Shown here: positions 5,326-63,089 of the stretch, in pieces
Layout of the letters: each line of letters starts with the position of its first letter
Position numbering within the stretch: the stretch's first letter is position 1
Source of the DNA: Nitrospira sp. MA-1
GTDB lineage: Bacteria > Nitrospirota > Nitrospiria > Nitrospirales > UBA8639
Assembly: GCA_032139905.1 (NCBI GenBank)
Contig: JAQJDB010000005.1
Span: 169,001 to 233,000, forward strand
DNA length: 64,000 nucleotides
Direction of reading: 5' to 3'
Made by a program: the position numbers and the translations under genes
The notes under the pieces: generated by a model
The model's database searches: none
Told to the model about the DNA's origin: nothing
The model's input: only the letters and a program-made list of their open reading frames with translations

Positions 5326-5338
5326 ACTGTAATGATTT

Positions 5339-13873: not shown

Positions 13874-13895
13874 CCAGAACACCAATACGTTTCAG

Positions 13896-39135: not shown

Positions 39136-39167
39136 GCGGCGCCTCCTGGTTGTTCGTATGTCTGTTT

Positions 39168-39191
39168 AGACGGAAGCCCACAAAAATTTCC
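39168..39191 (-). promoter_or_regulatory. Candidate ECF-sigma promoter for the second receptor gene
   Basis: Read on the minus strand: GGAAATTTTTG, nine bases, then GTCT. GGAAAT and CGTC are the FecI-type -35 and -10 words as recalled. The same AAATTTTTG/GTCT pair is found upstream of the other receptor gene (21202-21225). It sits about 35-55 bp before the receptor start. Confidence 0.45.
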
Positions 39192-39229
39192 TCACTTCTT
39201 CTGCCAAAGATTGTGAGGAAAACGATTTT

Positions 39230-40225: not shown

Positions 40226-40306
40226 AGACTGCCCTCGATCCTCGATATGCCCGGCGTTGAAAGAAAGGGCTAGTATATCTAGTGACGAATTTGTGGGCCA
40301 ATCCCC

Positions 40307-45555: not shown

Positions 45556-48500
45556 ATGAATGTTGAGCACGAGACAATCGTCGATCTTTTACGAATGTGG
45601 GCGAGCCGGATCCCGCAGCAACAAGCCTATATTTTTTTAGTGGACGGTGAAACGGACGCCGTCCACGTGACTTATGAGGAGCTTGACCGGCGAGCGCAGG
45701 CTATTGCTACACGATTGAAAAGTTTAGGTGTCACCGGTGAACGCGCGCTTTTACTGTATCCACCGGGACTTGATTTTATCATCGCCTTCTTCGCCTGCTT
45801 ATATGCAGGTGTGATTGCGGTACCGGCCTATCCTCCGCAACGTAAGCGTACGTTGCCACGCCTGCAAGCTATCCTGACAGATGCACAACCTAAATTAGCG
45901 CTAACAACGACACAAGTTCACGCAAGTGTCGAGCGATTCTGCAATCAGGATTCCGGGTTGGATAATTTAAAGAATCTGCAATGGTTGAGCACTGATGTGC
46001 TCACACCGGACACCGAAACAGTTTGGTGCATGCCTGACATTAACGGTCGGACACTCGCATTTCTTCAATACACATCAGGGTCGACAGGCTTACCGAAGGG
46101 CGTCATGGTCAGTCACGGTAATCTGTTGGACAACGAGCGGGTAATCAAGCAGGCATTTGGACATACGGAGCAAACGGTCGTGCTCGGATGGCTCCCCCTC
46201 TATCACGATATGGGATTGATCGGGAACGTGTTGCAACCTCTGTATCTCGGTGCGCCGTGCGTGCTCATGTCTCCTCTTCACTTTCTGCAGAAGCCGTTAC
46301 GGTGGCTGTCCGCGATTTCGCGATATCGTGCGACGACCAGCGGGGGGCCGAATTTTGCTTATGACCTGTGCGTGCGCCAAACGACTCCGGAGCAGCGCGC
46401 GTCGTTGGATCTCAGTTGTTGGACGGTCGCGTTTAATGGGGCTGAACCGATTCACCCTAGCACGCTGGATCGATTCACGGACGCCTTCAGTGGGTCGGGG
46501 TTCCGTCGGGAGGCGCTGTATCCGTGTTACGGGTTGGCAGAGGCGACCTTGTTTGTTTCCGGGGGTGAGAGGACAAAGCCTCCGGTACTTCGAAGGATTA
46601 ACAAAAACGAATTGCAGGAGCACCGCATCCTTGATCGGACGGAATCCGATGCCGAGATGCAACAATTGGTGGGGTGTGGATATTCACGTTTCGAACAAGA
46701 GATTCGCATTGTAGACCCCGAGTCGTTACGAATTTGTCTGGTTGGCCGCGTCGGAGAAGTGTGGGTGAAAGGGCCTAGCATCGCAAGGGGTTATTGGAAT
46801 CGACCGGAAGACACGTCACGGACATTCGGAGGTTATACCTCGGATACCAGCGAAGGACCGTTCCTTCGAACAGGTGATCTTGGGTTTGTGAAGGAAGGTG
46901 AACTGTTCATCACGGGGCGGTTGAAAGATCTCATCATAATCCGTGGTCGCAACTATTATCCCCACGATGTCGAACTGACGGCACAACAGAGTCATGAGAG
47001 CCTTCGACCGGAAGGCGGCGCGGCGTTCTCGATTACGCTCCAAGAAGAAGAGTCCCTGGTGGTCGTCCATGAAGTGGACTCCCGTCCTGCCTCATTCAAT
47101 GCCCAGATGGTGATAGCCGCAATTCGTCAGGCCATCACCGAACATCATGAAGTACAAGTTGCGGCAGTGGTGCTCATCAAGGCAGGGACACTCCCCAAAA
47201 CGTCCAGTGGAAAAGTTCAGCGAAACCTGTGTCGTCTGAAGTTTCTCGCTCAGGGATTCAATGTGATCGGGCAGTCCGCCCTGCCGACATCTCCTTTTGA
47301 AACCGAATACGAACGGGGAGAGCAAGCAGACCGGGGGCAAGGGAATGAGCTAGAAGCAACCGTCATCGGGATTTGGTCGAAGGTGTTGCAGCAGCCGAGA
47401 ATTCACCTCCAGGACAATTTTTTTGCCATGGGGGGGGATTCATTGCGCGGAATGCAGATGTTGGCTCGTCTACAGGAAATCTGTCGAGTCGATGTGCCGT
47501 TGGATGCGCTTTTCGATTATCCGACCGCGGCGGAATTTGCCGCCCACATCGGGACCCTCACGCCCTCTGTCGAATCGACTTCGGGGACGTCCATTCACCA
47601 TACGTCACGAGAGGGAGCGTCGCCCCTGTCGTTTGCTCAGGAACGGTTCTGGTTTCTTGAGCAGTTATCACCCGGTACTCCGTTTAACAATATTCCCATC
47701 GCACTGCGGCTGAAGGGTTCGCTCGATATCGAGGTCCTCCGTCGATCGCTCGACGAAATTGTTTCTCGTCATGAGATTCTCCGTGCCACCTTCGTTCTAC
47801 GCAATGGCCAACCGGCTCAGATCATTGCACCTCGTCTTGAGCTTCCATTGTTGATAGAGGACTTGCAGCGGGTTTCCGAGTCGAGTCGTGAAGAGCAGCT
47901 TCAAAGCCTGCTCGGAGATGAGGCTCGTCGACCTTTTGATTTGATTAAGGATCCACTTCTTCGCTTTCGATTATTCCGGGTTAGCGAAGCCGACCATGTT
48001 CTTTCGCTGACTATTCATCATATTGTCGCGGACGGTTGGTCGATGGGTATTTTCAGCCGTGAACTGGCAGCGTTGTACCAGGCATTTCTGCAGGGGGGGG
48101 GCTCCCCGTTGCCGGCTCTTCCGGTCCAGTATCTCCATACGGTCATTCAGCAGAGAGAAAGTGTTCGAGAACAAATATTTCAACGGCAGGTGACCTATTG
48201 GCAACAGCGCCTGGACCATGCTCCCCACACCCTGAATCTGCCGTTTGATTTTCCCCGACCGGAAGTACAGGGGTATCGAGGGGCACGCTATGAGTGGACA
48301 TTGGATGGGTCACTTGTCCAGCAGTTGCAGGCGGTTGGGTATCGATATCGGACCACGTTGTTCATGACGTTGCTGGCGACCTTTAATATTCTCTTGTCGC
48401 GCTATAGCGGTCAATCAGATCTCTGTGTCGGAACGCCGGTTGCTAACCGTAACCGGATTGAGTGCGAATCCCTGATTGGTTGTTTCGTCAATTCGGTCGC

Positions 48501-51279
48501 CTTGCGTGCCGATCTTTCCGGCAATCCACCATTTCCTGATTTCCTCGATCAGGTTCGAGCGACGGTTCTTGGCGCCCAGGCGAACCAGGAGATTCCATTC
48601 GAGCGATTGGTCGATGAGTTGAAGGTGGGTAGAGACTTAGGTCATACGCCGATCTTTCAGGTGATGTTCGTCCTGGCGGATCGTCCATCGGATGTCCGTG
48701 CGTTGGGAGGCCTGGAAGCGTGCAGGATGAGTGTGAATACACAAACATCCGTGTTCGACCTGACGTTGGAGATGGCAGAAAAGGCCAACGGGAATCTGGG
48801 GGGAGTATTCGAATACAGTACGGATCTGTTTACGAGCCGGACAATCGTTCGTATGGCCGAACATTTTCAGGCCTTGTTGGCTCAAGTCGTCGCATGTCCG
48901 GAGTCCCGCGTGGATGATTGGCCAATGGTGACGGCGAACGAGCGCGCGTATGTCCTCGTAAACTGCAATGAGACGACAACGCCTTATCCTGATGAGTCTT
49001 GTCTACATCAATTGCTTGAGGCTCGGGTCGCTGAAAGTCCGGATGCCGTGGCGCTGCTGTGCGAGGGGCGTTCGTATGCCTATGACTTCATAAACAGCAG
49101 AGCGAATCAACTCGCCCGGTATTTACGGGCTCAAGGAATCGGTCCGGAGATTCCCGTGGCCCTGTGCGTGGATCGGTCTCTCGAAATGGTGGTTGGTCTC
49201 CTGGGCATCCTCAAGGCCGGCGCGGCCTATGTGCCCATGGATCCGACCTATCCCAAAGAGCGGCAGTCGATCATTCTCAAAGATGTCCACCCCCGGCTGC
49301 TCTTAACGCAAGGGAAATTTTCCGGAGAGCTGCCGGATCAAGCGGTACCGGTCTTTGCACTCGATAGTGATTGGCCCGTGGTGGCCGGGTTTCCGGACAC
49401 CAATTTGCCGAATCTCACGAGCCCCGACAATCTGGCTTACATTCTCTATACCTCCGGGACTACCGGCCGGCCAAAGGGAACCGGCATTTCCCATCGAGCA
49501 CTGGTAAATCACGCGACCGCGATGGTGAGGCAATACGGTCTTGCTTCGACGGATCGTGTCCTTCAGTTTGCATCCGTCAGCTTTGATGTGGCTGCCGAAG
49601 AATGTTTCCCGACATGGATTGCGGGGGCAACGGTGGTGTTGCGCCCCAATGAGCCGGTTCCTGCCTGTACCGATTTCCACACATTTCTTTGCGAGCAGGG
49701 CCTGACTGTCCTGAATCTTCCGACGCCCTATTGGGCGGGGTGGGTCGAAGAGATGGAGCGAATCAGCCTGCCGGTTCCACCGTTGATCAGACTGGTCATC
49801 GTGGGGAGCGAAAAGGCCTTGCCTGCCTCTCTGGTCCGCTGGCGACGCGTCGTTGGAGATCGTGTTGTCTGGTGCAACTCGTATGGCCCCACGGAAACCA
49901 CGGTCACCGCCAGCAGTTATGTGCCAGGACCGGAGGTGGATTGGACAACCATGCCCAACGTACCGATCGGACAACCAATTGCGAATGTCGAGTTGTATGT
50001 TCTTGACTCGAATATGCAGCCCGTTCCGCTCGGTGTGCCGGGCGATCTGTACATCGGAGGACTGGGGCTGGCTCGTGGATACCACCAGATGCCGGCCCTC
50101 ACTGCTGAAAAATTCATTCCGCATCCATACAGCCGTGGGGCAGGGGAACGGTTGTACCGAACCGGTGATCGTGTCCGTCGGCGGCCGGACGGGCAGGTGG
50201 AATTTCTGGGACGACGGGATGAACAGGTAAAGATCCGAGGATTCCGGATCGAGCTTCCTGACATTGAGTTCCATGCGCGCCAATGTCCCCAGGTAAAGGA
50301 GGTCAGAGTGTTTTTGGAATCCGGTGGGGTTCCCGGATGGCCGGCACTCATCGGCGGCCTCAGTGAGATCGAACAAGACCGGAGGCTGCAGGAAGTTGAG
50401 TGTTTGACTGCAGTGGAAGCGCAGTGGGTGTATGACGTGGAATCGAATGCTGAGGAACGGAGGAAGACTGTGATTCAACGAAAGCCGGAGTTTGATGTGT
50501 TCCTGAAAATCAATAACGGAGAGTTCTTAACGCCACCGCGTGAAAATCAGCGCAACTGGCTTATGCGCCGGGCCCTTGACGAATTTTCTGATGATCTCGT
50601 CGCCCTCGACGCAATTTCTAAGCGGTTTGTTTCCGGGTCAGACCGGGTCAGCATCGATCAGAGCTGGACGGGAAGTCGGGCCGAATATACGCCTTCTGAA
50701 CTGATCATCGAAGGGCAACAAGTCATGCAGGATTGGGAAGCGCCCTTGATGAAGGCGATGGCCGACATTGCCACGGAATCCCGTGGCGATGTGCTTGAGG
50801 TCGGATTCGGAATGGGTATTTCAGCGACGTACATTCAGGCCGGTCAACCTCGTTCGCACACCATCATTGAGTGCAACCGTGATGTGATGAATGTGTTTTC
50901 GGACTGGACCGGGCGATACCCGGGTCGGGATATTCGTCTCGTTCAAGGACAGTGGCAGGAAGTCGTTGGGACATTGTCTGACTTTGACGCCGTATTTTTT
51001 GATACCTATCCGGCGAGTGAAGCAGAGTTTGAAGAGACGGTGATCAATAGCATCAACTTTGCCGAAGCCTTTATACCTTCGGCTGCAAAATTATTGCGGC
51101 CGGGTGGCGTATTTACCTATTACACGAACGAGATTGATTCCTTCAGCCGACGGCATCAACGATTCCTCTTCCAGCATTTTAGTTCATTCACCCTCAGCAT
51201 CGTCCGATCGCTGCTTCCGCCGGAGGATTGTCATTATTGGTGGGCAGATTCGATGGCTGTCGTCAAGGCGGTGAAGTGA
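45556..51279 (+). CDS. NRPS: fatty acyl-AMP ligase - ACP - condensation - adenylation (N-terminal part) - guanidino-type N-methyltransferase
   Basis: This 1907-residue megasynthase starts peptide assembly with a fatty acid. Domains: FAAL at about 1-585 (YTSGSTGLPKG at 172; WLPLYHDMGLIGNVLQPLY; SSGKVQR); ACP at 590-665 with phosphopantetheine site S629 (GGDSLRG); condensation at 690-1120 with H821-H822-IVADG; adenylation from about 1150 (YTSGTTGRPKG at 1298, NSYGPTETT about 1440, A8 VKIRGFRIE about 1560). Instead of A9/A10, a methyltransferase follows at 1690-1907 (LEVGFGMGIS, HTIIECN, FDTYP, LLRPGGVFTYY). It resembles guanidinoacetate N-methyltransferase (GAMT), with E1728 and D1816 at the guanidino-binding positions. 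The rest of the adenylation domain is in the next gene, one base after the stop. No strong ribosome-binding site precedes the ATG. The product is an N-acylated residue, perhaps methylated on a guanidino group. Confidence 0.93.
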   Translation: MNVEHETIVDLLRMWASRIPQQQAYIFLVDGETDAVHVTYEELDRRAQAIATRLKSLGVTGERALLLYPPGLDFIIAFFACLYAGVIAVPAYPPQRKRTLPRLQAILTDAQPKLALTTTQVHASVERFCNQDSGLDNLKNLQWLSTDVLTPDTETVWCMPDINGRTLAFLQYTSGSTGLPKGVMVSHGNLLDNERVIKQAFGHTEQTVVLGWLPLYHDMGLIGNVLQPLYLGAPCVLMSPLHFLQKPLRWLSAISRYRATTSGGPNFAYDLCVRQTTPEQRASLDLSCWTVAFNGAEPIHPSTLDRFTDAFSGSGFRREALYPCYGLAEATLFVSGGERTKPPVLRRINKNELQEHRILDRTESDAEMQQLVGCGYSRFEQEIRIVDPESLRICLVGRVGEVWVKGPSIARGYWNRPEDTSRTFGGYTSDTSEGPFLRTGDLGFVKEGELFITGRLKDLIIIRGRNYYPHDVELTAQQSHESLRPEGGAAFSITLQEEESLVVVHEVDSRPASFNAQMVIAAIRQAITEHHEVQVAAVVLIKAGTLPKTSSGKVQRNLCRLKFLAQGFNVIGQSALPTSPFETEYERGEQADRGQGNELEATVIGIWSKVLQQPRIHLQDNFFAMGGDSLRGMQMLARLQEICRVDVPLDALFDYPTAAEFAAHIGTLTPSVESTSGTSIHHTSREGASPLSFAQERFWFLEQLSPGTPFNNIPIALRLKGSLDIEVLRRSLDEIVSRHEILRATFVLRNGQPAQIIAPRLELPLLIEDLQRVSESSREEQLQSLLGDEARRPFDLIKDPLLRFRLFRVSEADHVLSLTIHHIVADGWSMGIFSRELAALYQAFLQGGGSPLPALPVQYLHTVIQQRESVREQIFQRQVTYWQQRLDHAPHTLNLPFDFPRPEVQGYRGARYEWTLDGSLVQQLQAVGYRYRTTLFMTLLATFNILLSRYSGQSDLCVGTPVANRNRIECESLIGCFVNSVALRADLSGNPPFPDFLDQVRATVLGAQANQEIPFERLVDELKVGRDLGHTPIFQVMFVLADRPSDVRALGGLEACRMSVNTQTSVFDLTLEMAEKANGNLGGVFEYSTDLFTSRTIVRMAEHFQALLAQVVACPESRVDDWPMVTANERAYVLVNCNETTTPYPDESCLHQLLEARVAESPDAVALLCEGRSYAYDFINSRANQLARYLRAQGIGPEIPVALCVDRSLEMVVGLLGILKAGAAYVPMDPTYPKERQSIILKDVHPRLLLTQGKFSGELPDQAVPVFALDSDWPVVAGFPDTNLPNLTSPDNLAYILYTSGTTGRPKGTGISHRALVNHATAMVRQYGLASTDRVLQFASVSFDVAAEECFPTWIAGATVVLRPNEPVPACTDFHTFLCEQGLTVLNLPTPYWAGWVEEMERISLPVPPLIRLVIVGSEKALPASLVRWRRVVGDRVVWCNSYGPTETTVTASSYVPGPEVDWTTMPNVPIGQPIANVELYVLDSNMQPVPLGVPGDLYIGGLGLARGYHQMPALTAEKFIPHPYSRGAGERLYRTGDRVRRRPDGQVEFLGRRDEQVKIRGFRIELPDIEFHARQCPQVKEVRVFLESGGVPGWPALIGGLSEIEQDRRLQEVECLTAVEAQWVYDVESNAEERRKTVIQRKPEFDVFLKINNGEFLTPPRENQRNWLMRRALDEFSDDLVALDAISKRFVSGSDRVSIDQSWTGSRAEYTPSELIIEGQQVMQDWEAPLMKAMADIATESRGDVLEVGFGMGISATYIQAGQPRSHTIIECNRDVMNVFSDWTGRYPGRDIRLVQGQWQEVVGTLSDFDAVFFDTYPASEAEFEETVINSINFAEAFIPSAAKLLRPGGVFTYYTNEIDSFSRRHQRFLFQHFSSFTLSIVRSLLPPEDCHYWWADSMAVVKAVK

Positions 51280-51280
51280 T

Positions 51281-51937
51281 ATGGAGGATGCTGTTCAACG
51301 GATCAATCGCCTGACCGAACCGCAGCGAAAACTTCTTCGCTTCAGATTGGGGGGCATGCGGTACGAACGGGAAGGGGAATCTCGACTGGTGGGGTATGTC
51401 GTGCCTTGTGTCCAAGATGCGACGACTGTTCAGGATCTCCGCGGATTTTTGGCAGAACGTCTCCCGGATTATATGGTGCCAAGAACCTGGATTGTTCTCG
51501 ACGCTTTCCCTCTGACATCCCGCGGAAAGGTAGATCGCAAGGCGTTACAGGATATGGCTCGGTCGGCACCGGATGCGGTGTCTCATCAGCAGGGCGCGCC
51601 TCGAAACGACTGCGAGCGAAATATCGCAGCGATTTGGAAAGAAGCGCTGGGTCTGCACGCCGTCGGACTGCACGACAATTTTTTTGATCTGGGCGGGCAC
51701 TCCCTTCTGTTGCCGAAGGTCCTCACTCAGATACGAGCCTTGACCAAGCGCCAGGTGGCGATGGTCGATCTGTTTCGTTATCCGACGGTACAGGCATTGG
51801 CCGCATTTGTCTCGGCGGATGGGGCGCCAATTGTGGAAGCAGGGGCAACGCAACAGGTTCGTGATAAGCGAGAAGCGGGAGTGAGGCGGATGAAGCAGCA
51901 ACGACGACAGAGACAAGAAGCGGTGAGGGGCGAATGA
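51281..51937 (+). CDS. NRPS fragment: C-terminal adenylation subdomain plus peptidyl carrier protein
   Basis: This 218-residue protein completes the adenylation domain begun in the previous gene. Residues 1-30 form a short amphipathic leader (RINRLTEPQRKLLRFRL) like module-start linkers. Then come RLVGYVVP and A9 (LPDYMVPRTWIVLDAFPLT). A10 is RGKVDRKAL with catalytic lysine K83. A carrier domain follows with S141 (DLGGHSLLL). A basic, glutamine-rich tail (residues 195-218) may dock to the PKS. It starts at TGATATG, one base after the upstream stop, which suits reinitiation. Its own stop overlaps the PKS ATG (ATGA). The break lies between methyltransferase and A9, so the two proteins must associate to activate the amino acid. 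Confidence 0.92.
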   Translation: MEDAVQRINRLTEPQRKLLRFRLGGMRYEREGESRLVGYVVPCVQDATTVQDLRGFLAERLPDYMVPRTWIVLDAFPLTSRGKVDRKALQDMARSAPDAVSHQQGAPRNDCERNIAAIWKEALGLHAVGLHDNFFDLGGHSLLLPKVLTQIRALTKRQVAMVDLFRYPTVQALAAFVSADGAPIVEAGATQQVRDKREAGVRRMKQQRRQRQEAVRGE

Positions 51938-54900
51938 CGGACGCCGTGGAGCTATCCAATGAGGACCCAGTCGCTGAGGGCTTGGAAGTAGCCATCGTCG
52001 GGATGGCCGGCCGATTTCCAGGTGCGAACAATCTTGATGAGTTTTGGCGCAATCTTCATGGTGGCGTCGAGTCTGTCTCCACGCTGAGTCGTGAAGAGCT
52101 ACTGGAGTCTGGAGTGGAGGCAAAGGTTTTGGATCGGACGAACTATGTCCGGGCTCGCGCGGTATTAGATGAGGTCGATCTCTTCGATGCCAAATTTTTC
52201 AATATGACACCTAAAGAAGCCGAGATCATGGACCCTCAGCAGCGACTGTTCCTTGAATGTGCATGGGAAACACTGGAACGCGGTGGATATGACCCGGAGC
52301 AATATCAAGGATTGATCGGCGTTTACGCAGGATCGAGCACCAGCGGTTATCTCTTTAATTTATTCCCTCGCCGGATACTCTTACAGTCGGCCGCTGACAT
52401 GGCGGCGATGCTCGGCGTGGAAAAGGATTCACTCTCGACGCGTGTGTCCTACAAATTGAATCTGGAAGGGCCCAGTTTAGCGGTGCAAACGGCCTGTTCG
52501 ACGTCCCTGGTTGCGGTTCATCTTGCCTGCCAAGCCCTGCTGAGTGGTGAATGTGATATGGCCCTGGCAGGCGGTGTCTCTATCAGTGTCCCGCAGAAAG
52601 TGGGCTATCTCTATCAGGAGGGCGGCATCGTCTCTCCGGATGGTCATTGCCGGACCTTCGATGCTGATGCCGAAGGCACTGTCGGCGGGAGTGGCGTGGG
52701 CCTGGTGTTGCTCAAGCGGTTGCAGGAGGCGGAAGCGGATGGCGATCATATTTTTGCGGTGATCAAGGGTTCGGCGATTAATAACGATGGGGCCGCCAAA
52801 GTCGGTTACACAGCCCCTCGTATCGAGGGCCAGGCTAAAGTGATTAGAGCGGCGCACCTGGCATCCGGCGTGACGGCTGACTCCATCTCGTATGTCGAGG
52901 CTCATGGAACAGGGACCCCAATGGGGGACCCGATCGAAGTAGAGGCGCTGACCCAGGCCTTTCGAGCTTCGACGGTTCGTACCGGATTCTGTGCCCTCGG
53001 TTCAGTCAAAACCAATATCGGCCATTTGGATGCTGCGGCCGGCATCGCCGGTTTGATCAAGACGGTACTGGCCCTCTCCCATAGGCAGATTCCCGCAAGC
53101 TTGCATTACGTTCGCCCCAATCCCGCCATCGATTTTTCCGCTACACCGTTTTATGTGAACAGGACCTTGTCGGAGTGGGGGCGTGGCGAGTCACCGCGCC
53201 GCGCGGCCGTCAGTTCGTTCGGGCTTGGAGGCACGAATGCGCATGTGGTTCTGGAGGAGGCACCGTCACCTCAGAGCGCATCTGAAGTGGGTGAGGAAGG
53301 CCGTTGTCAGTTACTTCTGTTGTCGGCCCGGTCGGAAGCGGCCTTGAACGAAACGACAACTCGTCTTGCGACGCATCTCCATGCACATCCGGACCTCTGC
53401 CTTGCCGACGTGGCCCATACTCTTCAATCAGGTCGGAAAGCCTTTCCGTATCGTCGTTGGCTGATGGCCAGGAATACTGAGGAAGCCGTGCGGCTGTTGG
53501 GTCGCCCCATAGTTAGGGGAGGAACCGCCGGCCCTGTGGAAGGAGAACATCGGGTTGCCTTCATGTTTTCCGGACAGGGTTCCCAGTATCCACATATGGG
53601 GCATTCTCTTTATCAGCAACAGTCTCTGTTCCGCGAGCATGTGGATCGGTGCGCGTCGATGTTAAATCGGCGGCTCGATCGGGACATTCGGACAGTACTG
53701 TTTCCTGCCTCTGGTGCAGAAAAGGATCTGATTCATCAGACCAGCCTGACCCAGCCGGCACTGTTCGTGTTCGAGTATGCCCTTGCGCAACTCTGGAAGG
53801 CATGGGGAATTCACCCACATGCCATGATCGGGCACAGCATCGGGGAATATGTCGCGGCCTGCCTATCCGGGGTATTTTCAGTTGAAGACGCGTTGGCGAT
53901 CGTCGCGATGCGCGGGAGATTGATGCAGGAGCTTCCACCCGGAAGCATGCTGGCCGTTCCGCTCACCGAGCTGGAGTTAACACCGTATCTGGGCGGCAAT
54001 CTGGATCTCGCTGCAGTCAATGCTCCTGGACAGTGTGTGGTCTCCGGAGCTGATGACCGGATCGATGCATTGGACCGTACGTTGGCAGCTCAGAGCATTC
54101 GAGGTCGGCGCCTCAAGACCTCGCATGCGTTTCATTCATCCATGATGGATCCGATTCTGAAGCGCTTTGAATCCTTTCTTGCCGGAATAGAAATGCAAGC
54201 CCCCCAAGCTCCCTGGGTATCGAATGTGAGTGGTACTTGGATTCGATCCGAAGAAGCGTTGGATCCCGCTTACTGGTCCCGTCATTTGCGCTCAACGGTG
54301 CGCTTCTCCGATGGGGTTCGAACATTGTTGGAAGAACCGGCGCCGGTATTTTTGGAGATCGGTCCCGGTCGCACGTTGCAAAATCTGGCCAGGAGGCATC
54401 CCGTTCCGGTTGGCTCATTTGTGCTGGCCTCACTTGATGGCCTCGATCAAAAGGCGGCCGGTCAGGACGAAATGCCTGTCATCCTGGCGACGCTTGGTTC
54501 TCTTTGGGGGGCTGGGGTTCGAGTGCATTGGAGCGGTCTGCAGAGCGGGCATCGGCCACGACGAGTTGTTCTGCCGACCTATCCTTTTGAGCGGCAGCGT
54601 TACTGGGTGGAACCTGGTCGGAGTGAACCTGTCCAGGTTCCTGCGTCCGGTAAAAGGCAGGCCGATCTCTCGAAATGGTTTTATCAACCCTCGTGGAAAC
54701 GGTCAGTACTCGTGGCGAAGGGTAAACAACGTCCGGACGAAACGTGGCTGGTTTTTCTCGATGAACGGTCGAGCGGCGCGGGACCTGTCAGAGAGCTGGA
54801 ACGACAGGGCCGGTCGGTGGTCACCGTGTTGGCCGGCAGGGGATTTAAACGGTGTGTCGATGGGACCTATCGAGTAAGACCAGATTCCCGTGAGGATCAT

Positions 54901-56484
54901 GAGTTGTTGCTTCGAGAATTGACCAGCCGGAATCACCTTCCATCCTGTCTCCTGCATGCCTGGACCATCGGGGATGAATTGCAAGAAACAACTGCTACCG
55001 GGCGACTCCAGGTGACACAAGAAAGAGGATTTCTCCATTTGCTCATTCTTGCGCAAATTTTCGGATGCCGGCGCACGGCTCGACTCTCGATCCTCGTCCT
55101 TTCTCAAGGGTTGCATGATGTCACGGGCCAGGAATCATTACGTCCTGAACAGGCCACCGTGCTGGGAGCCTGTCGTGTCATTCCACAAGAGTATCCGGGC
55201 GTGACATGCGGTGTGATCGACCTGGAACAAGTTGCTACGGAGACGCCATTTTTCGATGAAATTTGTGAACGGCTCATCGAGGAAGTCTCCAATCTTGATG
55301 CTGAGACGGTCGTGGCCTACCGAGGTGGACATCGATGGGTACAGACGTTTGAGCCACTCATCCTTGCAGAAAGCGATACAGATACTTCTCTGCTGTGGGA
55401 GGAAGGGGTGTATCTCATTACGGGCGGTTTGGGCGGGGTGGGACTCTGCCTTGCCGAGTATCTCATTCGTACGGTGCATGCGCGGGTGATTTTGACGAGT
55501 CGGACCCTCCCGACTCCTGAGCAGCGTGAGCGTGTGGCCGGCCTGGCGCAATCGGGCGATCGCGTTCTGGTTCTTCAGGCCGATGTCGCTGATCCTGTGC
55601 AAATGCAGGGAGTGATTGATGAAGCCCTTCGACAGTTCGGCCGAATTCATGGGGTGTTTCATGCAGCGGGAATCGCCGGCGGCGGACTTCTGGAGCTGAA
55701 AAACCCGGAATCCGTATGGAATGAATTTCGTCCAAAGGTTTCCGGAGCCTTGGTGCTGGAAGAGGCGTTTCGCGATAGGCAACTTGATTTTGTGATGTTC
55801 TGTTCGTCCCTGACGGCTGTGGTTGGAGGGGTGGGCCAGGCGGCCTATTGCGCGGCCAACGCCTTTCTGGATGCCATGGCACATGCCAGCACGAAAAAAG
55901 GAACACGCGTCATCTCTGTGAATTTCGATCGATGGAAACAGGTCGGTATGTCGGTTGCAGCGGAAGAGTGGCTCAAGACCTTGCAGGTCCCTGAAGAGGA
56001 TTTGGATGGCATGACTCCGCAGGAAGGTCAGGACGTGGTCCACCGAATTCTTTGCGGGCCGAACCTCCCGCAGGTTGCCGTGTCCATCCGTGATCTGCCG
56101 ACAGTGGTCGCTTCCGTTACGCGGATTTCGTTGACGCCATCACAGATGAGGCAGGCAACGACTCCGTCTGTCATCGGAGGCGCCACGGAGTCCTTGGAAC
56201 AAGAGGTGGCAGACTTGTGGCAACAGATTCTGGGCACCGGACGTGTGGGGCTTGAGGATGATTTTTTCCGGGTGGGGGGCGAATCCTTGAGCGCCCTTCA
56301 GCTGTTGAATCGTGTTCAAGAGCTTTTTGGTATCGAGCTGTCGCTCCGCGAATTCTTTGATGCACCGACGGTTTCGGGATTGGTCAAGCAAATTCGCGCG
56401 GCGCGAGCCACCGGAGCACAGCAAGAGCCGAAAATTGTTCCCATTCCTCGTCAAGCCCGACGATTGCGGGGGGCTTCGGTATGA
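51934..56484 (+). CDS. Type I polyketide synthase module KS-AT-KR-ACP
   Basis: This 1516-residue module extends the acyl-aminoacyl chain by one ketide unit and reduces it to a hydroxyl. The ketosynthase (about 15-450) has the triad C188 (TACSTS), H324 (EAHGTGT) and H364 (NIGHLDAAAG). The acyltransferase (about 540-860) has S635 (GHSIGE) and HAFHS at 731, which favours malonyl-CoA. The ketoreductase (about 1155-1400) has TGGLGGVG at 1163-1170 and catalytic Y1305 (YCAANAF). The ACP has S1451 (GGESLSA). There is no dehydratase, enoyl reductase or thioesterase. It overlaps the preceding gene by four bases. It should give a beta-hydroxy acid (statine-like if joined to the amino acid) for the following modules, which lie outside the window. 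Confidence 0.95.
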   Translation: MTDAVELSNEDPVAEGLEVAIVGMAGRFPGANNLDEFWRNLHGGVESVSTLSREELLESGVEAKVLDRTNYVRARAVLDEVDLFDAKFFNMTPKEAEIMDPQQRLFLECAWETLERGGYDPEQYQGLIGVYAGSSTSGYLFNLFPRRILLQSAADMAAMLGVEKDSLSTRVSYKLNLEGPSLAVQTACSTSLVAVHLACQALLSGECDMALAGGVSISVPQKVGYLYQEGGIVSPDGHCRTFDADAEGTVGGSGVGLVLLKRLQEAEADGDHIFAVIKGSAINNDGAAKVGYTAPRIEGQAKVIRAAHLASGVTADSISYVEAHGTGTPMGDPIEVEALTQAFRASTVRTGFCALGSVKTNIGHLDAAAGIAGLIKTVLALSHRQIPASLHYVRPNPAIDFSATPFYVNRTLSEWGRGESPRRAAVSSFGLGGTNAHVVLEEAPSPQSASEVGEEGRCQLLLLSARSEAALNETTTRLATHLHAHPDLCLADVAHTLQSGRKAFPYRRWLMARNTEEAVRLLGRPIVRGGTAGPVEGEHRVAFMFSGQGSQYPHMGHSLYQQQSLFREHVDRCASMLNRRLDRDIRTVLFPASGAEKDLIHQTSLTQPALFVFEYALAQLWKAWGIHPHAMIGHSIGEYVAACLSGVFSVEDALAIVAMRGRLMQELPPGSMLAVPLTELELTPYLGGNLDLAAVNAPGQCVVSGADDRIDALDRTLAAQSIRGRRLKTSHAFHSSMMDPILKRFESFLAGIEMQAPQAPWVSNVSGTWIRSEEALDPAYWSRHLRSTVRFSDGVRTLLEEPAPVFLEIGPGRTLQNLARRHPVPVGSFVLASLDGLDQKAAGQDEMPVILATLGSLWGAGVRVHWSGLQSGHRPRRVVLPTYPFERQRYWVEPGRSEPVQVPASGKRQADLSKWFYQPSWKRSVLVAKGKQRPDETWLVFLDERSSGAGPVRELERQGRSVVTVLAGRGFKRCVDGTYRVRPDSREDHELLLRELTSRNHLPSCLLHAWTIGDELQETTATGRLQVTQERGFLHLLILAQIFGCRRTARLSILVLSQGLHDVTGQESLRPEQATVLGACRVIPQEYPGVTCGVIDLEQVATETPFFDEICERLIEEVSNLDAETVVAYRGGHRWVQTFEPLILAESDTDTSLLWEEGVYLITGGLGGVGLCLAEYLIRTVHARVILTSRTLPTPEQRERVAGLAQSGDRVLVLQADVADPVQMQGVIDEALRQFGRIHGVFHAAGIAGGGLLELKNPESVWNEFRPKVSGALVLEEAFRDRQLDFVMFCSSLTAVVGGVGQAAYCAANAFLDAMAHASTKKGTRVISVNFDRWKQVGMSVAAEEWLKTLQVPEEDLDGMTPQEGQDVVHRILCGPNLPQVAVSIRDLPTVVASVTRISLTPSQMRQATTPSVIGGATESLEQEVADLWQQILGTGRVGLEDDFFRVGGESLSALQLLNRVQELFGIELSLREFFDAPTVSGLVKQIRAARATGAQQEPKIVPIPRQARRLRGASV

Positions 56485-56524
56485 GATCGACTGCGGTGTG
56501 GCAGCCGCGAAGGAACGAATTCAG

Positions 56525-58267
56525 ATGAACTTGATCAGATTTTTGATACGCAGTTCCTGGCAATTGCTGCTGGGTTCCATTCTGGCCGGTGTGGTGAGCG
56601 GGCTTGCCGGAGCCGGAATTATTGCGGTCATCCATAGGGGAATGAACGGGACCGATTGGTCGTCCATGCTTGCCTGGAGTTTTCTGGCCCTCGCGGTACT
56701 GGTCGCCGTGACCAAAGCCCTGTCGGAAATTCTGCTGACCAGGTTGGGCCAACGCACCATTTCAGAGTTACGAATGCAGCTGAGTCGACGCATTCTGCAT
56801 GCCCCGCTCCGTCAGTTTGAGGAACTGGGTTCACATCGGTTGCTCGCTGCCTTGAGCGACGACACGGACGTTATCGCGCAGGCCTATGTCCAGTTGCCGC
56901 TTATCTGCGTCAATCTCGCGACGACGATCGGCTGTCTTGCATACTTGGGATGGCTATCCTGGCCACTGCTGATTCTCGTTCTGGCATTTATGGCACTCGG
57001 GAGCATGACGTTCAATCTGCAGGAACAGCGCGCATTGCAATATTTCAAACAAGCACGAGAGACCAACGATGCCCTGTTCGGACATTTCCGTTCCATCATG
57101 GCCGGGATCAAAGAACTCAAGTTGCATCGGCCGCGGCGGGAGGCGTTTCTCGAAACATTGCTTCAGCGAACTGTGAGGGAGTATCAGCGGGACTTTGTCG
57201 GGGGCATGACGGTGTATTCCATCGCGTCCAGTTGGGGAACGTTTCTCTTCTATGCCGTCATCGGCGTCATCCTCTTCCTCTGGCCGTCATGGCGTGACCT
57301 GCCTATTGAGACTGTGGTCGGCGTCACTCTGGTCCTGTTGTACATGATGGGTCCGTTTGCGCAGATTATAGAATTGTTGCCGGGTGTCGGTCGCGCGAAT
57401 ATCGCTCTGAAGAAAATTGAGGCGCTGGGCCTGTCGTTGGCTGCCTCTGCCACGAATCTTACTGGTGAAGCCGTTTCCGGCCCAGCGATTGAACTCGATC
57501 CCAGTGGCTGGCGGTGTCTGGAATTATCAAACGTCACGCATCGGTATTATCGCGAGGGAGAGGATTCCAGTTTTACTGTGGGTCCGATCAATTTAAGTTT
57601 TTCTCCCGGTGAAGTGACGTTTCTCATCGGCGGAAACGGAAGCGGTAAGACCACGCTGGCGATGTTACTGTTGGGTCTCTACACACCTGAGTCTGGAACG
57701 GTTTGCCTCGACGGTGTCCCGATCGAGGACGCCAATCGTGAAGCCTATCGACAATTGTTTTCAACGGTATTCTCGGATTTCTGTTTATTTGATTCCCTGC
57801 TGGGTCTCCAGAGAGACGATCTGGATGCGGAGGCTCTTATGTATTTGGAACGATTGCAACTCCGGTCCAAGGTACAAATCGAGCAAGGCGCCTTCTCGAC
57901 CCAGGCGCTTTCTCAAGGACAACGGAAACGACTGGCGCTGTTGACGGCCTATGTTGAAGACCGGCCGTTTTACGTGTTCGATGAATGGGCAGCCGATCAG
58001 GACCCGCTGTTTCGAAAAGTGTTTTACACGGAGCTTCTTCCGGATCTGAAGGCACGGGGCAAGACGGTTTTCGTCATTACGCATGACGACCAATATTTTC
58101 CGTTGGCCGATCGGTGCATTCGAATGGATTACGGAATGATCGTGGATGTCGCCGCACAATCCACGATTTGCAGCGAGCAGGATTTTGCATTGTCTCAATC
58201 CACGGGGTCCGGAGTGGCCGGGAACCCAGTACGGGCGGGTTCTTTATTCAAGGAGGATCAAGTATGA
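56525..58267 (+). CDS. Cyclic peptide/siderophore export ABC transporter (PvdE/SyrD family)
   Basis: This 580-residue half-transporter has six N-terminal membrane helices (from SSWQLLLGSILAGVVSGLAGAGIIAVIH) and a C-terminal ATPase: Walker A IGGNGSGKTT with K375, signature LSQGQRKRLALL and Walker B FYVFDEWAADQDP. The DEWAADQDP and THDDQYF segments are hallmarks of the PvdE/SyrD branch that moves siderophore or lipopeptide precursors to the periplasm. ATG at 56525 is used (AAGGAA upstream); the longer frame overlaps the PKS. Its stop overlaps the next start (ATGA). With the periplasmic acylase encoded downstream it suggests export of an acylated precursor. Confidence 0.94.
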   Translation: MNLIRFLIRSSWQLLLGSILAGVVSGLAGAGIIAVIHRGMNGTDWSSMLAWSFLALAVLVAVTKALSEILLTRLGQRTISELRMQLSRRILHAPLRQFEELGSHRLLAALSDDTDVIAQAYVQLPLICVNLATTIGCLAYLGWLSWPLLILVLAFMALGSMTFNLQEQRALQYFKQARETNDALFGHFRSIMAGIKELKLHRPRREAFLETLLQRTVREYQRDFVGGMTVYSIASSWGTFLFYAVIGVILFLWPSWRDLPIETVVGVTLVLLYMMGPFAQIIELLPGVGRANIALKKIEALGLSLAASATNLTGEAVSGPAIELDPSGWRCLELSNVTHRYYREGEDSSFTVGPINLSFSPGEVTFLIGGNGSGKTTLAMLLLGLYTPESGTVCLDGVPIEDANREAYRQLFSTVFSDFCLFDSLLGLQRDDLDAEALMYLERLQLRSKVQIEQGAFSTQALSQGQRKRLALLTAYVEDRPFYVFDEWAADQDPLFRKVFYTELLPDLKARGKTVFVITHDDQYFPLADRCIRMDYGMIVDVAAQSTICSEQDFALSQSTGSGVAGNPVRAGSLFKEDQV

Positions 58268-59661
58268 CGGTTCATGTCGATGAAATATGGGAATCCATTG
58301 CGACCGGTCAAACTGCCCGGATAGAACATCTGGGCGCCAATCCCTATCTGGAGCGGCAAGCGCTGAGAGAGTCGAGTGCACGCAGTTACCCGCGCCGGCT
58401 GCCACTGGCGCTCAAGAAGGGGAAGGGCATCTATGTTCAAGATCACGAGGGGCGGACCTATATTGATTGTCTGGCCTGTGCCGGGGCATTGGCTCTTGGC
58501 CACAATCATCCTGTCGTTGTCGAGGCGATCAGCCGGATGCTGCGGGACGAACTTCCGTTTCAGACGCTGGATTTGACCACGCCGGTCAAAGACCGCTTTG
58601 TGGAGAAAGTGTTTGAGTGTTTGCCGAAGGAATTTGCCGATGGTGCGAAAATTCAATTCTGTGGACCATCCGGGGCCGATGCGGTCGAGGCGTCGATCAA
58701 ACTGGTGAAGATCGCGCGTGACCGACGGACGATCCTGGCATTTCAAGGGGCCTATCATGGGATGACGCATGGCACGCTGGGACTGACAGGCGATCTGGGC
58801 CCGAAAAGAGCCATCAGCGGGCTCATGGCTGATGTCCATTTTCTACCCTATCCCTATGCCTATCGTTGCCCGTTCGGTGTGGGAGGCGAAGAGGGGCATC
58901 GTCTCTCCAGTGCGTATATTGAGCGGCTCCTTGACGATCCCAACAGCGGTATCGTGGAGCCGGCCGGGATGATCCTGGAGGTAGTCCAGGGGGAGGGCGG
59001 AGTTATTCCGGCGTCGCTGAGCTGGCTTCAGGAAATCCGCCGTATTACTCGAGAGCGCAACATTCCCTTAATTGTCGACGAAGTTCAAACAGGCCTCGGT
59101 CGAACGGGGACCCTGTTTGCGTTCGAACAGGCGGGCATTGTGCCGGACGTCGTTGTCTTGTCCAAAGCGATCGGCGGCGGATTGCCGTTGAGCGTGGTGG
59201 TCTATCGGCCTGAATTGGATCGATGGACGGCAGGGGCGCATGCAGGCACCTTCAGGGGTAATCAAATGGCGATGGCGACCGGGGAGGCCACGATTGATTT
59301 TATTTGCCGCGAGCAGGTGGCATTGCATGCCGCCAGAATGGGCGAACGGCTGATGAGCAGCTTGAAACGAATACAGGGTGACTCACGGAGTCTCGGCGAT
59401 GTGCGGGGTCGAGGTTTGATGGTGGGTGTGGAAGTTGTCGACACCAACAAGTCCTCGGATAAGTCCGGGGGGTTCGCTGCTGCGCCGGCTATCGCGAGCA
59501 AGATCCAGAACGAAGCCTTGCGGCGAGGACTGATACTGGAACTGGGCGGGCGGAATAACAGTGTTGTGCGGTTTCTTCCTCCCTTGATCGTCACAACGGA
59601 ACAGATCGATACGATCTCGACAATTTTCTCAGAGGCCGTCTCGGCGGCGGAGCGGGATTAA
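58264..59661 (+). CDS. Diaminobutyrate--2-oxoglutarate aminotransferase (class III, PvdH/EctB-like)
   Basis: This 465-residue PLP aminotransferase of class III has K301 as Schiff-base lysine (LSKAIGGGLPLS), FCGPSGADAVEASIKL, FQGAYHGMTHGTLGLTG, LEVVQGEGGV and LIVDEVQTGLGRTG. The whole pattern is that of the DABA aminotransferase family, which makes L-2,4-diaminobutyrate from aspartate semialdehyde with glutamate as donor. Length equals PvdH. A strong AAGGAGG precedes the ATG, which overlaps the transporter stop. It should supply DAB as a monomer for NRPS modules further right. Confidence 0.92.
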   Translation: MTVHVDEIWESIATGQTARIEHLGANPYLERQALRESSARSYPRRLPLALKKGKGIYVQDHEGRTYIDCLACAGALALGHNHPVVVEAISRMLRDELPFQTLDLTTPVKDRFVEKVFECLPKEFADGAKIQFCGPSGADAVEASIKLVKIARDRRTILAFQGAYHGMTHGTLGLTGDLGPKRAISGLMADVHFLPYPYAYRCPFGVGGEEGHRLSSAYIERLLDDPNSGIVEPAGMILEVVQGEGGVIPASLSWLQEIRRITRERNIPLIVDEVQTGLGRTGTLFAFEQAGIVPDVVVLSKAIGGGLPLSVVVYRPELDRWTAGAHAGTFRGNQMAMATGEATIDFICREQVALHAARMGERLMSSLKRIQGDSRSLGDVRGRGLMVGVEVVDTNKSSDKSGGFAAAPAIASKIQNEALRRGLILELGGRNNSVVRFLPPLIVTTEQIDTISTIFSEAVSAAERD

Positions 59662-59666
59662 TCGAC

Positions 59667-62048
59667 ATGACGCCTTTTCGTGTGGTGGCGATTGTCACTG
59701 TTGTCATTGTGGCAGCTGCGGGTGGATGGAGCGTGCTGGTGCTGCGCGCCTCCCTCCCGGTTTTGGACGGCGACGTGAAGATAGGAGGAATACAGGCGCC
59801 CGTGACCGTGACGTTTGACCCACAAGGCATTCCCACGATCATCGCCGCATCACGATTGGATGCGCTACGGGCGCTGGGGTTCGTGACGGCGCAGGACCGC
59901 CTCTTTCAAATGGATGTATTGCGTCGAAGCAGTGCCGGACGGCTGGCCGAGGTGTTCGGGGAGTCGGTCGTGGATATGGACATCAAGCAACGAACGGTCG
60001 GGTTTACACAGGTGGCGGACGCCGTCATGAGCCGTATGCCCGAAGAGCAGAGATCGGCTTTGGAGGCTTACGCAGAAGGAGTCAATGCATTTCTCGACCA
60101 GATGGAGGGGCTTCCGGTCGAATGTGTGATGCTCGGTTACCGTCCGGAGATCTGGCGGCCGGCAGACAGTGTGCTGGTCGTATTGGGAATGTTTCAGGTG
60201 CTGAACGGATATGAGGAGGATGAACGCATGCGCACCGTCATGGGCAGCGTCCTTCCAGACGACGTTTTGGCCTTTCTCGTTCCTGCCGTCGATGCCTACA
60301 CCGATAAGCTGCTGCGAGGCATTACATCACAGGCCGCGATGTCTCCTATCCCGGTGCAGACTCTGGCCACGATTCGGCGTCCCTTGGACCTGAGCCGGAT
60401 ATCCCGGGCGTCGATTGTCAATTCCGATAAACCCGTCGTGGGATCGAACGCCTGGGCAATCGGGGGATCCAGAACAACAGACGGCCGAGCCATTCTCGCC
60501 AACGATATGCATCTTGACGTGGCGGTTCCCAATATCTGGTATCGCGTCCAGCTTCAGTACGAGGACGTCGAGATGGCCGGCATTGTCGTGCCGGGAATTC
60601 CTGTGATGATCACGGGGTCGAACGGGTATGTCGCGTGGGGCTTGACCAATGTAGAAGGAGATTTTCTTGATCTCGTACAGGTGGAACTTAATCCTCGTAA
60701 TGCGCAGGAATATGCGACTCCGGAAGGCTGGCGTTCCTTTACCACCCGTGGAGAAACGATTGTGGTCAAGGATGGAGATGACCGGCAGGTCGAGGTGAAG
60801 GAAACGCTCTGGGGGCCCCTGGCGTCCGAACCTTTGCTTGGACGACCGGTGGCAATTCGTTGGACCGCCCTTGATCCGGATGCAGTGGATGTGGGGTTGC
60901 TGCACCTGGATCGGGTCCGTTCTTTGGCGGAGGCGATCTCTGTGGTGAATCGCGCGGCCGGACCCGCAAACAATGTGCTGCTTGCGGATAGGGATGGTCA
61001 CATTGCCTGGACCTATACAGGCAGGATTCCCATTCGCCATGGATTTGACGGTTCCGTCAGCCTTTCATGGGCGGATGGCCAGGCAGGATGGTCGGGATTC
61101 ATCGAACCGGATCAGTTGCCGCGAATTGTGAACCCTCCGTCAGGATTTCTGGTGAATGCGAATCAACGCATGGTGGACGGCAACGACCCCTATGTGATCG
61201 GCCATTCATTTGCCGGCGGGTATCGAGCGTATCGAATTACTGAGCGCTTGCGCACCATGGTCCCGGCGCGTGAGCCGGACTTGTTCTCCATTCAACTGGA
61301 TACGACGACGGAGATCTATGAGTTCTACCGGAGCCTGGCGTTAGAGTTGCTGAACCAGGCGGAGGTTCAGCAGAAACCTCATCTGTGGGAAGCCCATCGT
61401 GTTCTTGATGCCTGGAATGGAAAGGCTGATGCCGGGAGCATTGGAATTGGGCTATTGGCGGAATTTAGGAACTCGTTGGCGCGCTCGGTCTTTACACCAT
61501 TTTTGGAAGAATGCCGTGAGAAAGACAAAGGTTTTGTCTATGACGGAAATCTGGATACCCCTTTGCGCGCCCTCCTGACTGCGCAAGTGCCTCAGCTTCT
61601 CCCGGATCAGGAGCACTTCACGGATTGGCATGACTTTCTTCTGCATGTGCTGGAGCAAAGCATTGAGGATCTGAAGGCCAGATATCATGTGGTGACCCTG
61701 AGTGAATTGACCTGGGGAACCATGAATCGGGTCGAGATGGTGCATCCGTTGGGGAATGCAATTCCGGGTTTGGGATATGTATTAAATATGCCGGAAGAAA
61801 AAATGCCCGGATGCAGCCAGTGTGTGCGAGTTATTAGCGGAAGTCTCACAGCCAGCCAGCGCATGGTGGTGTCTCCGGCTCATCATGAAGACGGAATATT
61901 TCATATGCCGGGCGGACAGTCGGGGCATCCGTTTTCACCTCACTACCGAGATCAGCAGCCCTACTGGAGTAAAGGCATTCCCACGCCATTGTTGGCAGGC
62001 CCGGTCACGCATCGACTTACATTGAGCCCTTTGCCGGGGCACACGTAA
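59667..62048 (+). CDS. Penicillin acylase-family Ntn hydrolase, probable PvdQ-like siderophore precursor deacylase
   Basis: This 793-residue precursor has an N-terminal signal or anchor helix (VVAIVTVVIVAAAGGWSVLVL), an alpha-chain region (FDPQGIPTIIAASRLDALRALGF, QDRLFQMDVLRR), and the self-cleavage site G259-S260-N (VGSNAWAIGG), where Ser260 becomes the N-terminal nucleophile of the beta chain. LANDMHLDVAVPNIWYRV follows as in the family. PvdQ removes the fatty acyl chain from pyoverdine precursors in the periplasm. The same job fits here because the NRPS begins with a fatty acyl ligase and a PvdE-like exporter is encoded upstream. Family assignment is firm; the substrate is inference. Confidence 0.92.
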   Translation: MTPFRVVAIVTVVIVAAAGGWSVLVLRASLPVLDGDVKIGGIQAPVTVTFDPQGIPTIIAASRLDALRALGFVTAQDRLFQMDVLRRSSAGRLAEVFGESVVDMDIKQRTVGFTQVADAVMSRMPEEQRSALEAYAEGVNAFLDQMEGLPVECVMLGYRPEIWRPADSVLVVLGMFQVLNGYEEDERMRTVMGSVLPDDVLAFLVPAVDAYTDKLLRGITSQAAMSPIPVQTLATIRRPLDLSRISRASIVNSDKPVVGSNAWAIGGSRTTDGRAILANDMHLDVAVPNIWYRVQLQYEDVEMAGIVVPGIPVMITGSNGYVAWGLTNVEGDFLDLVQVELNPRNAQEYATPEGWRSFTTRGETIVVKDGDDRQVEVKETLWGPLASEPLLGRPVAIRWTALDPDAVDVGLLHLDRVRSLAEAISVVNRAAGPANNVLLADRDGHIAWTYTGRIPIRHGFDGSVSLSWADGQAGWSGFIEPDQLPRIVNPPSGFLVNANQRMVDGNDPYVIGHSFAGGYRAYRITERLRTMVPAREPDLFSIQLDTTTEIYEFYRSLALELLNQAEVQQKPHLWEAHRVLDAWNGKADAGSIGIGLLAEFRNSLARSVFTPFLEECREKDKGFVYDGNLDTPLRALLTAQVPQLLPDQEHFTDWHDFLLHVLEQSIEDLKARYHVVTLSELTWGTMNRVEMVHPLGNAIPGLGYVLNMPEEKMPGCSQCVRVISGSLTASQRMVVSPAHHEDGIFHMPGGQSGHPFSPHYRDQQPYWSKGIPTPLLAGPVTHRLTLSPLPGHT

Positions 62049-62106
62049 CGGACGGAGCAACTTACGCGACGTCAGAGACTTTACCCTAACCATATAAGGA
62101 GGATTC

Positions 62107-62343
62107 ATGGGAAACGACGAACAGGAAGATACGACAGTCTACAAAGTAGTGATGAACCATGAGGAGCAATATTCCATCTGGCCGTCCTATCGAGATAATC
62201 CTCTCGGATGGTCGGATGTGGGGAAAACCGGCCTCAAAGAAGAATGTTTGGACTATATCAAGGAGGTATGGACGGATATGCGTCCGTTGAGTTTGCGAAA
62301 GTGGATGGCCGAACAAGCTGAAAAAACGGGTTCTTCATGCTAA
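62107..62343 (+). CDS. MbtH-family adenylation chaperone
   Basis: This 78-residue MbtH-like protein has the family string split as [31 protein letters not shown] and [15 protein letters not shown], with all three conserved tryptophans. These proteins bind and activate adenylation domains, and here possibly the split one. AAGGAGG precedes the ATG. Its end overlaps the thioesterase gene by 7 bases. Confidence 0.97.
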
Positions 62344-63089
62344 CCGCTGCACGATCACAACCATGGATTGTCACCTGCCGTCCGACGTCGGGAGTCCGGT
62401 TGTTGTGTTTTCCGTATGCCGGTGGAGGGCCTTCGGTGTTTCGCGGTTGGGCGCAATATCTTTCGCCGGAGATTGAACTCTGTGCTGTCCAGCTGCCTGG
62501 GCGAGAGGCGCGGATGAAGGAGTTACCCATCGGAAATCTCAGGCGTTTGGTTGCCGAACTCACGGACGCTCTCGAACCGAGTCTGGACAGACCCGTTGCC
62601 CTATTCGGGCACAGCATTGGCGGACTGATTGCATTTGAACTCGCACGGGAGATACGGCGGCGCTATGCCATCGAACCGGTGCATCTCTTTGTCTCGGGAT
62701 GTCCAGCGCCGCAGATCCGCGACAACGATCCACTGTTCGATCTACCGGAGGACGAATTTCTCGATCATATGCGGCGGTTCAATGGAACCCCACGGGAAGT
62801 GTTGGAACATCCGGAGATGATGCAACTTGTTCTTCCCGCGCTCCGTGCGGATTTTTCGCTCCGCGACACCTATGTGCATGTCGAGGAACCTCCTTTGCAC
62901 TGTGCGATTTCGGTGTTCGGCGGCCTGGAGGACACTCGTGTAGGCACAGAGGAACTGGAGAAATGGAGAGCCCATACGTCCGAATCGTTTCAGATGTGCC
63001 TGTTCCAGGGCGGGCATTTCTTCTTACGGACCGCGCAAGCCGCCGTAGTGGAATCCGTTACCCGGACATTGCATCGGTATGGACGGTGA
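62337..63089 (+). CDS. Type II thioesterase (GrsT-like)
   Basis: This 250-residue alpha/beta hydrolase belongs to the external NRPS/PKS thioesterases, which clear mis-primed carrier domains. It has [28 protein letters not shown], nucleophile S93 in FGHSIGG, and GGHFFL with the catalytic histidine near the end. It is not a chain-releasing domain, so the final thioesterase must lie outside the window. Translation is coupled to mbtH by overlap. Confidence 0.95.

What the first reader, a model, noticed from the sequence alone, without database searches (positions are those of the whole stretch)
50200..51560. Methyltransferase-interrupted adenylation domain split over two genes
The first protein contains A1-A8 and then ends right after the methyltransferase. 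The second begins one base after the stop (TGATATG), in another frame, and contains the strand RLVGYVVP, A9, A10 lysine K83 and the carrier domain. Interrupted A domains with an MT between A8 and A9 are known, but the A domain is then one polypeptide. Here the catalytic C-terminal subdomain would have to act in trans. The second protein has its own module-start-like leader and the upstream frame is closed by a stop at 51272-51274, which argues against a simple sequencing slip.
Basis: seen in the sequence. Interest (0 to 1): 0.8.

Follow-up and report, generated by a model that had tools for sequence, protein, structure and literature searches.

The report
Adenylation domain split across two genes
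In Nitrospira relatives, one amino-acid-activating domain of a peptide-building enzyme is always made as two separate proteins, cut just after a built-in methylating domain; one published antibiotic pathway shows such a cut domain can work, but this is a different, widely conserved version that probably methylates arginine.

Summary
Confirmed. ORF1 (45556-51279) is FAAL-PCP-C-A(A1-A8)-MT; TGA 51277-51279, one base, then ORF2 (51281-51937), which holds A9, A10 (K83) and the PCP. It is not a sequencing slip: 14 distinct Nitrospirales junctions have the identical stop-N-ATG layout, each with an ORF2-frame stop 9 nt before the ATG, and A9-A10 is mostly under purifying selection like the A core. 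The same two-gene split occurs in Nostoc, Thermodesulfobacteriota, Pyrinomonadaceae and Massilia; three actinomycetes use three genes (A1-A8 | MT | A9-A10-PCP). No single-ORF version was found. One Nitrospirales genome lost the MT core by an in-frame deletion yet kept the split. The idea is not new: corallorazine Crz1/Crz2 (PMC11342130, 2024) has the same split, and its halves reconstitute ATP exchange. Different here: the MT is a guanidinoacetate-methyltransferase homologue keeping GAMT's catalytic Asp134, and the A core's nearest solved structures are the bispecific A-domain set I take to be ApnA-A1 (Arg/Tyr). Best model: A-core/MT and A9-A10-PCP proteins assemble in trans, activate arginine (or a similar basic residue) and methylate its guanidine, in a siderophore-like cluster. 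New variant of a known kind.

The parts
45556..51279 (+). ORF1: FAAL-PCP-C-A(A1-A8)-MT, 1907 aa, no PCP after its A domain
49006..50331 (+). A core plus A8 (hinge D1555 at 50218, A8 Lys K1559 at 50230); specificity code DVENIGSVTK, its last K on ORF2
50332..50487 (+). linker with a predicted helical hairpin (WPALIGGLSEIEQDRRLQEVECLTAVEAQWVYDVE), kept in the relative that lost the MT; possible docking tail (inference)
50488..51276 (+). GAMT-like methyltransferase; SAM motif VLEVGFGMG at 50791, Glu45-equivalent E1728 (50737), Asp134-equivalent D1816 (51001)
51277..51283 (+). junction TGA-T-ATG, stop-N-ATG in 14 distinct Nitrospirales junctions; ORF2-frame stop at 51272-51274
51281..51937 (+). 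ORF2: helix-turn-helix leader (1-24), A9-A10 (25-95, K83), PCP (105-180, S141), basic C-terminal helix (187-216)
51934..56484 (+). next protein: PKS module KS-AT-KR-ACP
56312..58267 (+). cyclic-peptide/siderophore export ABC transporter (TIGR01194)
58114..59661 (+). diaminobutyrate--2-oxoglutarate transaminase
59667..62048 (+). penicillin-amidase-family acylase, weakly PvdQ-like
62107..62265 (+). MbtH domain, the only MbtH in the genome (G000:C5:231107-231265)
62337..63089 (+). type II thioesterase

Best explanation
This is a genuine split adenylation domain. ORF1 supplies the core, the A8 hinge and the methyltransferase; ORF2 supplies the remaining C-terminal subdomain with the A10 lysine, and the carrier domain. 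The two proteins, probably made in equal amounts by coupled translation, assemble so that the ORF2 part completes the C-terminal subdomain in trans, adenylates the residue and loads it on the ORF2 carrier domain; the GAMT-like domain then methylates it, most likely on a guanidine nitrogen of arginine. Shown: the architecture, its conservation, intact catalytic motifs. Inferred: assembly in trans (by precedent of Crz1/Crz2), translational coupling, arginine, guanidine methylation and docking by the flanking helices.
For: Stop-N-ATG junction with an ORF2-frame stop at -9 in 14 distinct Nitrospirales junctions. A9-A10 dN/dS 0.12-0.28 in six of seven pairs, like the A core. Same split in Nostoc, Thermodesulfobacteriota, Pyrinomonadaceae and Massilia, with different gaps or overlaps. 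Three-gene form in L042, L043, L045. ORF1 has no PCP after its A domain, so ORF2 is needed anyway. A10 Lys and PCP Ser conserved. Precedent: Crz1.2 alone inactive, with Crz2 1:1 near-quantitative glycine turnover. Arginine and guanidine: the top four structural neighbours of the A core are 4d4g/h/i and 4d56, titled bi-specificity of A-domains, 45-46% identity, which I recall as ApnA-A1; code DVEN(I/V)G(S/A)(V/I)TK against ApnA Arg codes DVEDIGAIEK and DVESIGAIEK; MT homologous to GAMT with Asp134 and Glu45 equivalents kept.
Against: No biochemistry on this pair. Window/L025 gives dN/dS 0.54 for A9-A10, from few substitutions. Code positions 278 (N) and 331 (T) differ from ApnA. In L035 and L038 the A cores have other codes (DAWD..., DASD...) although the MT is the same family, so the MT substrate need not be arginine everywhere. 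Complex formation could not be modelled.
Confidence: 0.85

Rival explanations
1. The two frames are really one gene, joined by a programmed frameshift or broken only by a sequencing error.
For: The proteins lie in register, one base apart, and interrupted A domains are normally single polypeptides.
Against: The junction is the same in 14 distinct Nitrospirales sequences, ORF2's frame is closed at -9 in all of them, leaving a few bases for any shift. Elsewhere the genes are separated by 157 nt (L034) or 14 nt (L035), or overlap by 4 nt (L038).
Confidence: 0.03
2. ORF2's A9-A10 stretch is a relic: the A domain is dead and another A domain loads the ORF2 carrier in trans.
For: Such trans-loading is reported for capreomycin CmnI (abstract). 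L043 Streptomyces has lost both A8 and the A10 lysine, so dead versions exist.
Against: A8, A9, A10 and the specificity code are kept across all aligned Nitrospira sequences, and A9-A10 evolves mostly under the same constraint as the core. In L043 both halves decayed together, as expected if they form one unit.
Confidence: 0.08
3. The split A domain works, but the MT methylates the alpha-amine of the carrier-bound residue like ordinary interrupted A domains, not the guanidine.
For: Most MTs inserted between A8 and A9 are listed as backbone N-MTs. The MT occurs with A cores of different codes.
Against: The MT is homologous to a guanidine N-methyltransferase and keeps its catalytic Asp and the Glu45 equivalent; the A core resembles the ApnA set.
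Confidence: 0.35

Closest known systems
Corallorazine synthetase Crz1/Crz2 (Corallococcus coralloides, PMC11342130)
   Same: MT after A8, stop codon, A9-A10 and T domain on the next ORF; both proteins needed for adenylation in vitro.
   Different: There the MT is described as a type I N-MT acting on glycine and ORF2 ends in a reductase; here a GAMT homologue, an Arg-like code, ORF2 is only A9-A10-PCP and feeds a PKS. I could not compare the sequences directly.
Interrupted adenylation domains A-MT-A (TioS 5WMM, KtzH, McyA)
   Same: MT inserted between A8 and A9; 5WMM is the fifth structural neighbour of the model.
   Different: Those are single polypeptides.
Guanidinoacetate N-methyltransferase (1xcj, 3orh)
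   Same: Homologous over the catalytic core (E 6.6e-28), with Asp134 and Glu45 equivalents.
   Different: GAMT is a free enzyme of creatine synthesis; this copy is built into an NRPS module.
ApnA-A1 of anabaenopeptin synthetase (4D4G-I, 4D56; name recalled, the PDB titles say bi-specificity of A-domains)
   Same: Nearest solved A domain (45-46% identity) and similar code DVExIG.
   Different: Positions 278 and 331 of the code differ; ApnA-A1 was not tested here for any inserted MT or split.
Pyoverdine biosynthesis (PvdQ, PvdE, PvdH functions)
   Same: Fatty-acid start, cyclic-peptide-type exporter, diaminobutyrate transaminase, penicillin-amidase acylase, TonB-dependent siderophore receptor with ECF sigma and FecR.
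   Different: Acylase matches PvdQ only weakly (44.7 bits, cut-off 950); codes suggest Dab, Ser and Asp rather than a chromophore.

Membership tests
Split A domain of the Crz1/Crz2 type | ORF1 holds A1-A8 and ends after the inserted MT | tested here: met
Split A domain of the Crz1/Crz2 type | adjacent ORF holds A9, A10 and the carrier domain with catalytic residues | tested here: met
Split A domain of the Crz1/Crz2 type | halves inactive alone, active together | not testable with these tools
   needs ATP-PPi exchange
Interrupted A domain (A-MT-A) | MT between A8 and A9 | tested here: met
Interrupted A domain (A-MT-A) | single polypeptide | tested here: not met
GAMT family methyltransferase | sequence homology to GAMT | tested here: met
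   E 6.6e-28
GAMT family methyltransferase | catalytic Asp134 and Glu45 equivalents | tested here: met
   (role of Glu45 from memory)
GAMT family methyltransferase | methylates a guanidine | not testable with these tools
   needs enzyme assay
Arginine-activating A domain (ApnA-like) | specificity code of known arginine domains | tested here: inconclusive
   DVENIGSVTK against DVEDIGAIEK / DVESIGAIEK; two discriminating positions differ
Frameshift error or pseudogene | disruption absent from relatives, relaxed selection | tested here: not met

The most novel reading that the evidence does not exclude
A family of adenylation domains built from two or three polypeptides, with flanking helices serving as docking elements, that carries a guanidine (side-chain) methyltransferase of the GAMT family instead of a backbone N-methyltransferase, and in which the split outlives the loss of the methyltransferase.
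Probability: 0.45. Interest if true: 0.65.

Novelty: new variant of a known kind. Interest (0 to 1): 0.5.

Why it matters
One split A domain has been shown to work, and its authors wondered whether it came from an erroneous recombination. Here the split recurs in at least six bacterial phyla, is fixed in every Nitrospira homologue found, exists in a three-gene form and survives deletion of the methyltransferase, so it is a stable design. It gives natural, diverse test pieces for cutting and recombining A domains at A8/A9 and a predicted guanidine-methylating module. It also marks a candidate siderophore of nitrite oxidisers.

Tried and rejected
Sequencing slip or programmed frameshift: rejected. 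Backbone N-MT annotation: no Pfam match for the MT and only weak NCBIfam matches; PDB search shows GAMT. First code extraction was one column off at positions 299 and 301; corrected by the pattern of the Ser/Dab/Asp modules. Wider MT searches in cyanobacteria, one actinomycete order and one betaproteobacterial order added only one locus (L058), an uninterrupted A-PCP-MT. Plasmids: no match. The 2020 survey of interrupted A domains (PMC8341866) is not held, so I cannot say whether it lists this type. Literature searches on Nitrospira NRPS and on GAMT-like NRPS domains gave nothing useful.

Full report
Observation. ORF1 (45556-51279, 1907 aa) reads FAAL-PCP-C-A-MT. Its A domain has motifs up to A8 (50209 onward), then a linker, then a methyltransferase that ends at the stop 51277-51279. 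ORF2 begins at 51281 in another frame and carries RLVGYVVP, A9, A10 with K83, and a PCP with S141. Pfam finds AMP-binding_C and the module's carrier domain only on ORF2. The stop at 51272-51274 closes ORF2's frame, as stated. One refinement: published anatomy puts A8-A10 in the small subdomain after a GRxD hinge, so the cut is within that subdomain.

Not an error. A search of 395 genomes of the phylum gave 16 with a match, 14 of them with the fused MT. All 14 have stop, one base, ATG, and in all of them ORF2's frame is closed 9 nt before the ATG. dN/dS of A9-A10 is 0.12-0.28 in six of seven pairs, like the A core (0.10-0.20); the close pair window/L025 gives 0.54 from few changes. A10 lysine is conserved in 17 of 18 ORF2 proteins and the PCP serine in all.

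How general. A scan of named genomes found 24 loci. Two-gene splits of the same form occur in Nostoc sp. S4 (L034), a Thermodesulfobacteriota MAG (L035), a Pyrinomonadaceae MAG (L036) and Massilia frigida (L038), with gaps from 157 nt to a 4-nt overlap. In Aeromicrobium (L042), Streptomyces sp. JHD 1 (L043) and Streptacidiphilus (L045) there are three genes: A1-A8, MT, A9-A10-PCP. In L043 both A8 and the A10 lysine are gone, so that copy looks dead as a whole. Other contexts are a complete A domain plus separate MT (L040), a fused A-PCP-MT (L058) and free MTs (L037, L039, L041, L044, L046-L048). A single-ORF A1-A8-MT-A9-A10 was not seen, though the sample is limited by the search. The MT tree needs three changes for the two-gene state and neither proves nor excludes a single origin. 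MT identity to the window exceeds A-core identity in the distant relatives (L035: 63% against 35%), so A cores seem to have been exchanged.

A natural deletion. In L053 (G189, same order, single-contig genome) the cluster is syntenic, but ORF1 ends ...PEVDVYLKIHEADSMAAKAVK: the two ends of the MT remain and its core is missing, in frame. A1-A8 and A9-A10-PCP stay on two genes with all motifs and the same type of code. No other MT match was found in that genome. The linker hairpin is kept there, and helical-looking tails also end the A1-A8 genes of the three-gene form; the ORF1 model predicts two helices in the linker and the ORF2 model two in the leader. I read these as docking elements; this is inference.

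Chemistry. The MT matches guanidinoacetate methyltransferase (E 6.6e-28). The GAMT catalytic Asp134 (role confirmed) and Glu45 (role from memory) are conserved in every intact MT aligned. The nearest solved structures of the ORF1 model are 4d4i, 4d4g, 4d56 and 4d4h, titled Understanding bi-specificity of A-domains; from memory these are ApnA-A1, which activates Arg and Tyr. The code is DVENIGSVTK here and DVEN(I/V)G(S/A)(V/I)TK in relatives; reported Arg codes of ApnA are DVEDIGAIEK, DVEDIGAVEK and DVESIGAIEK. Arginine with guanidine methylation is therefore the favoured substrate, at about 0.5-0.6.

Surroundings. Downstream are a KS-AT-KR-ACP protein, an exporter of the cyclic-peptide type, a diaminobutyrate transaminase, a penicillin-amidase acylase, the genome's only MbtH (window 62107-62265), a thioesterase and further NRPSs with codes DIWELTADDK (three times), DVWHISLIDK (twice), DLTKIGHVGK and DLTKIGHIGK, which from memory read Dab, Ser and Asp, and a C-terminal TauD-type oxygenase. 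Upstream are a TonB-dependent siderophore receptor, FecR, an ECF sigma factor, two PepSY proteins and an RND efflux set. This reads as a fatty-acid-started, Asp-hydroxylating siderophore pathway with late acyl removal (inference).

Comparison. Crz1/Crz2 of corallorazine is the direct precedent: MT after A8, stop, A9-A10-T on the next gene, Crz1.2 inactive alone and active 1:1 with Crz2. Classical interrupted A domains are single chains. The present case works like Crz1/Crz2 by anatomy, is not a member of the single-chain class, and differs by its MT family, its likely substrate, its deep conservation, its three-gene form and its MT-free form.

Noticed in passing
L053 (G189:C1:1100000-1118000), minus strand, 9154-14181: Clean in-frame loss of the MT core while the A domain stays split; a natural MT knock-out.
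   Followed up: yes
window 36547-40825 and 56312-63089, plus L055-L056: TonB siderophore receptor/FecR/ECF sigma, exporter, Dab transaminase, acylase and TauD-type oxygenase around Dab/Ser/Asp modules: a candidate beta-hydroxyaspartate lipopeptide siderophore of Nitrospirales.
   Followed up: partly
L055 about 4800-6500 and 11330-13030: Two Ser-type A domains in different NRPS proteins are identical at DNA level over about 1.6 kb while the upstream sequence is unrelated: recent copying or gene conversion of an A domain alone, or an assembly collapse.
   Followed up: partly
L042, L043, L045: Actinomycete NRPS clusters in which one A domain is spread over three genes; in L043 A8 and A10 are both degenerate.
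   Followed up: partly
L039, L041, L044, L048: Stand-alone relatives of the MT in loci with large type I PKS genes in Phytohabitans and Allokutzneria; possibly guanidine methylation of a polyketide.
   Followed up: no
window 51841-51928: ORF2 ends in a long basic helix (VRDKREAGVRRMKQQRRQRQEAVRGE) just before the PKS; possible docking element to the KS protein.
   Followed up: no
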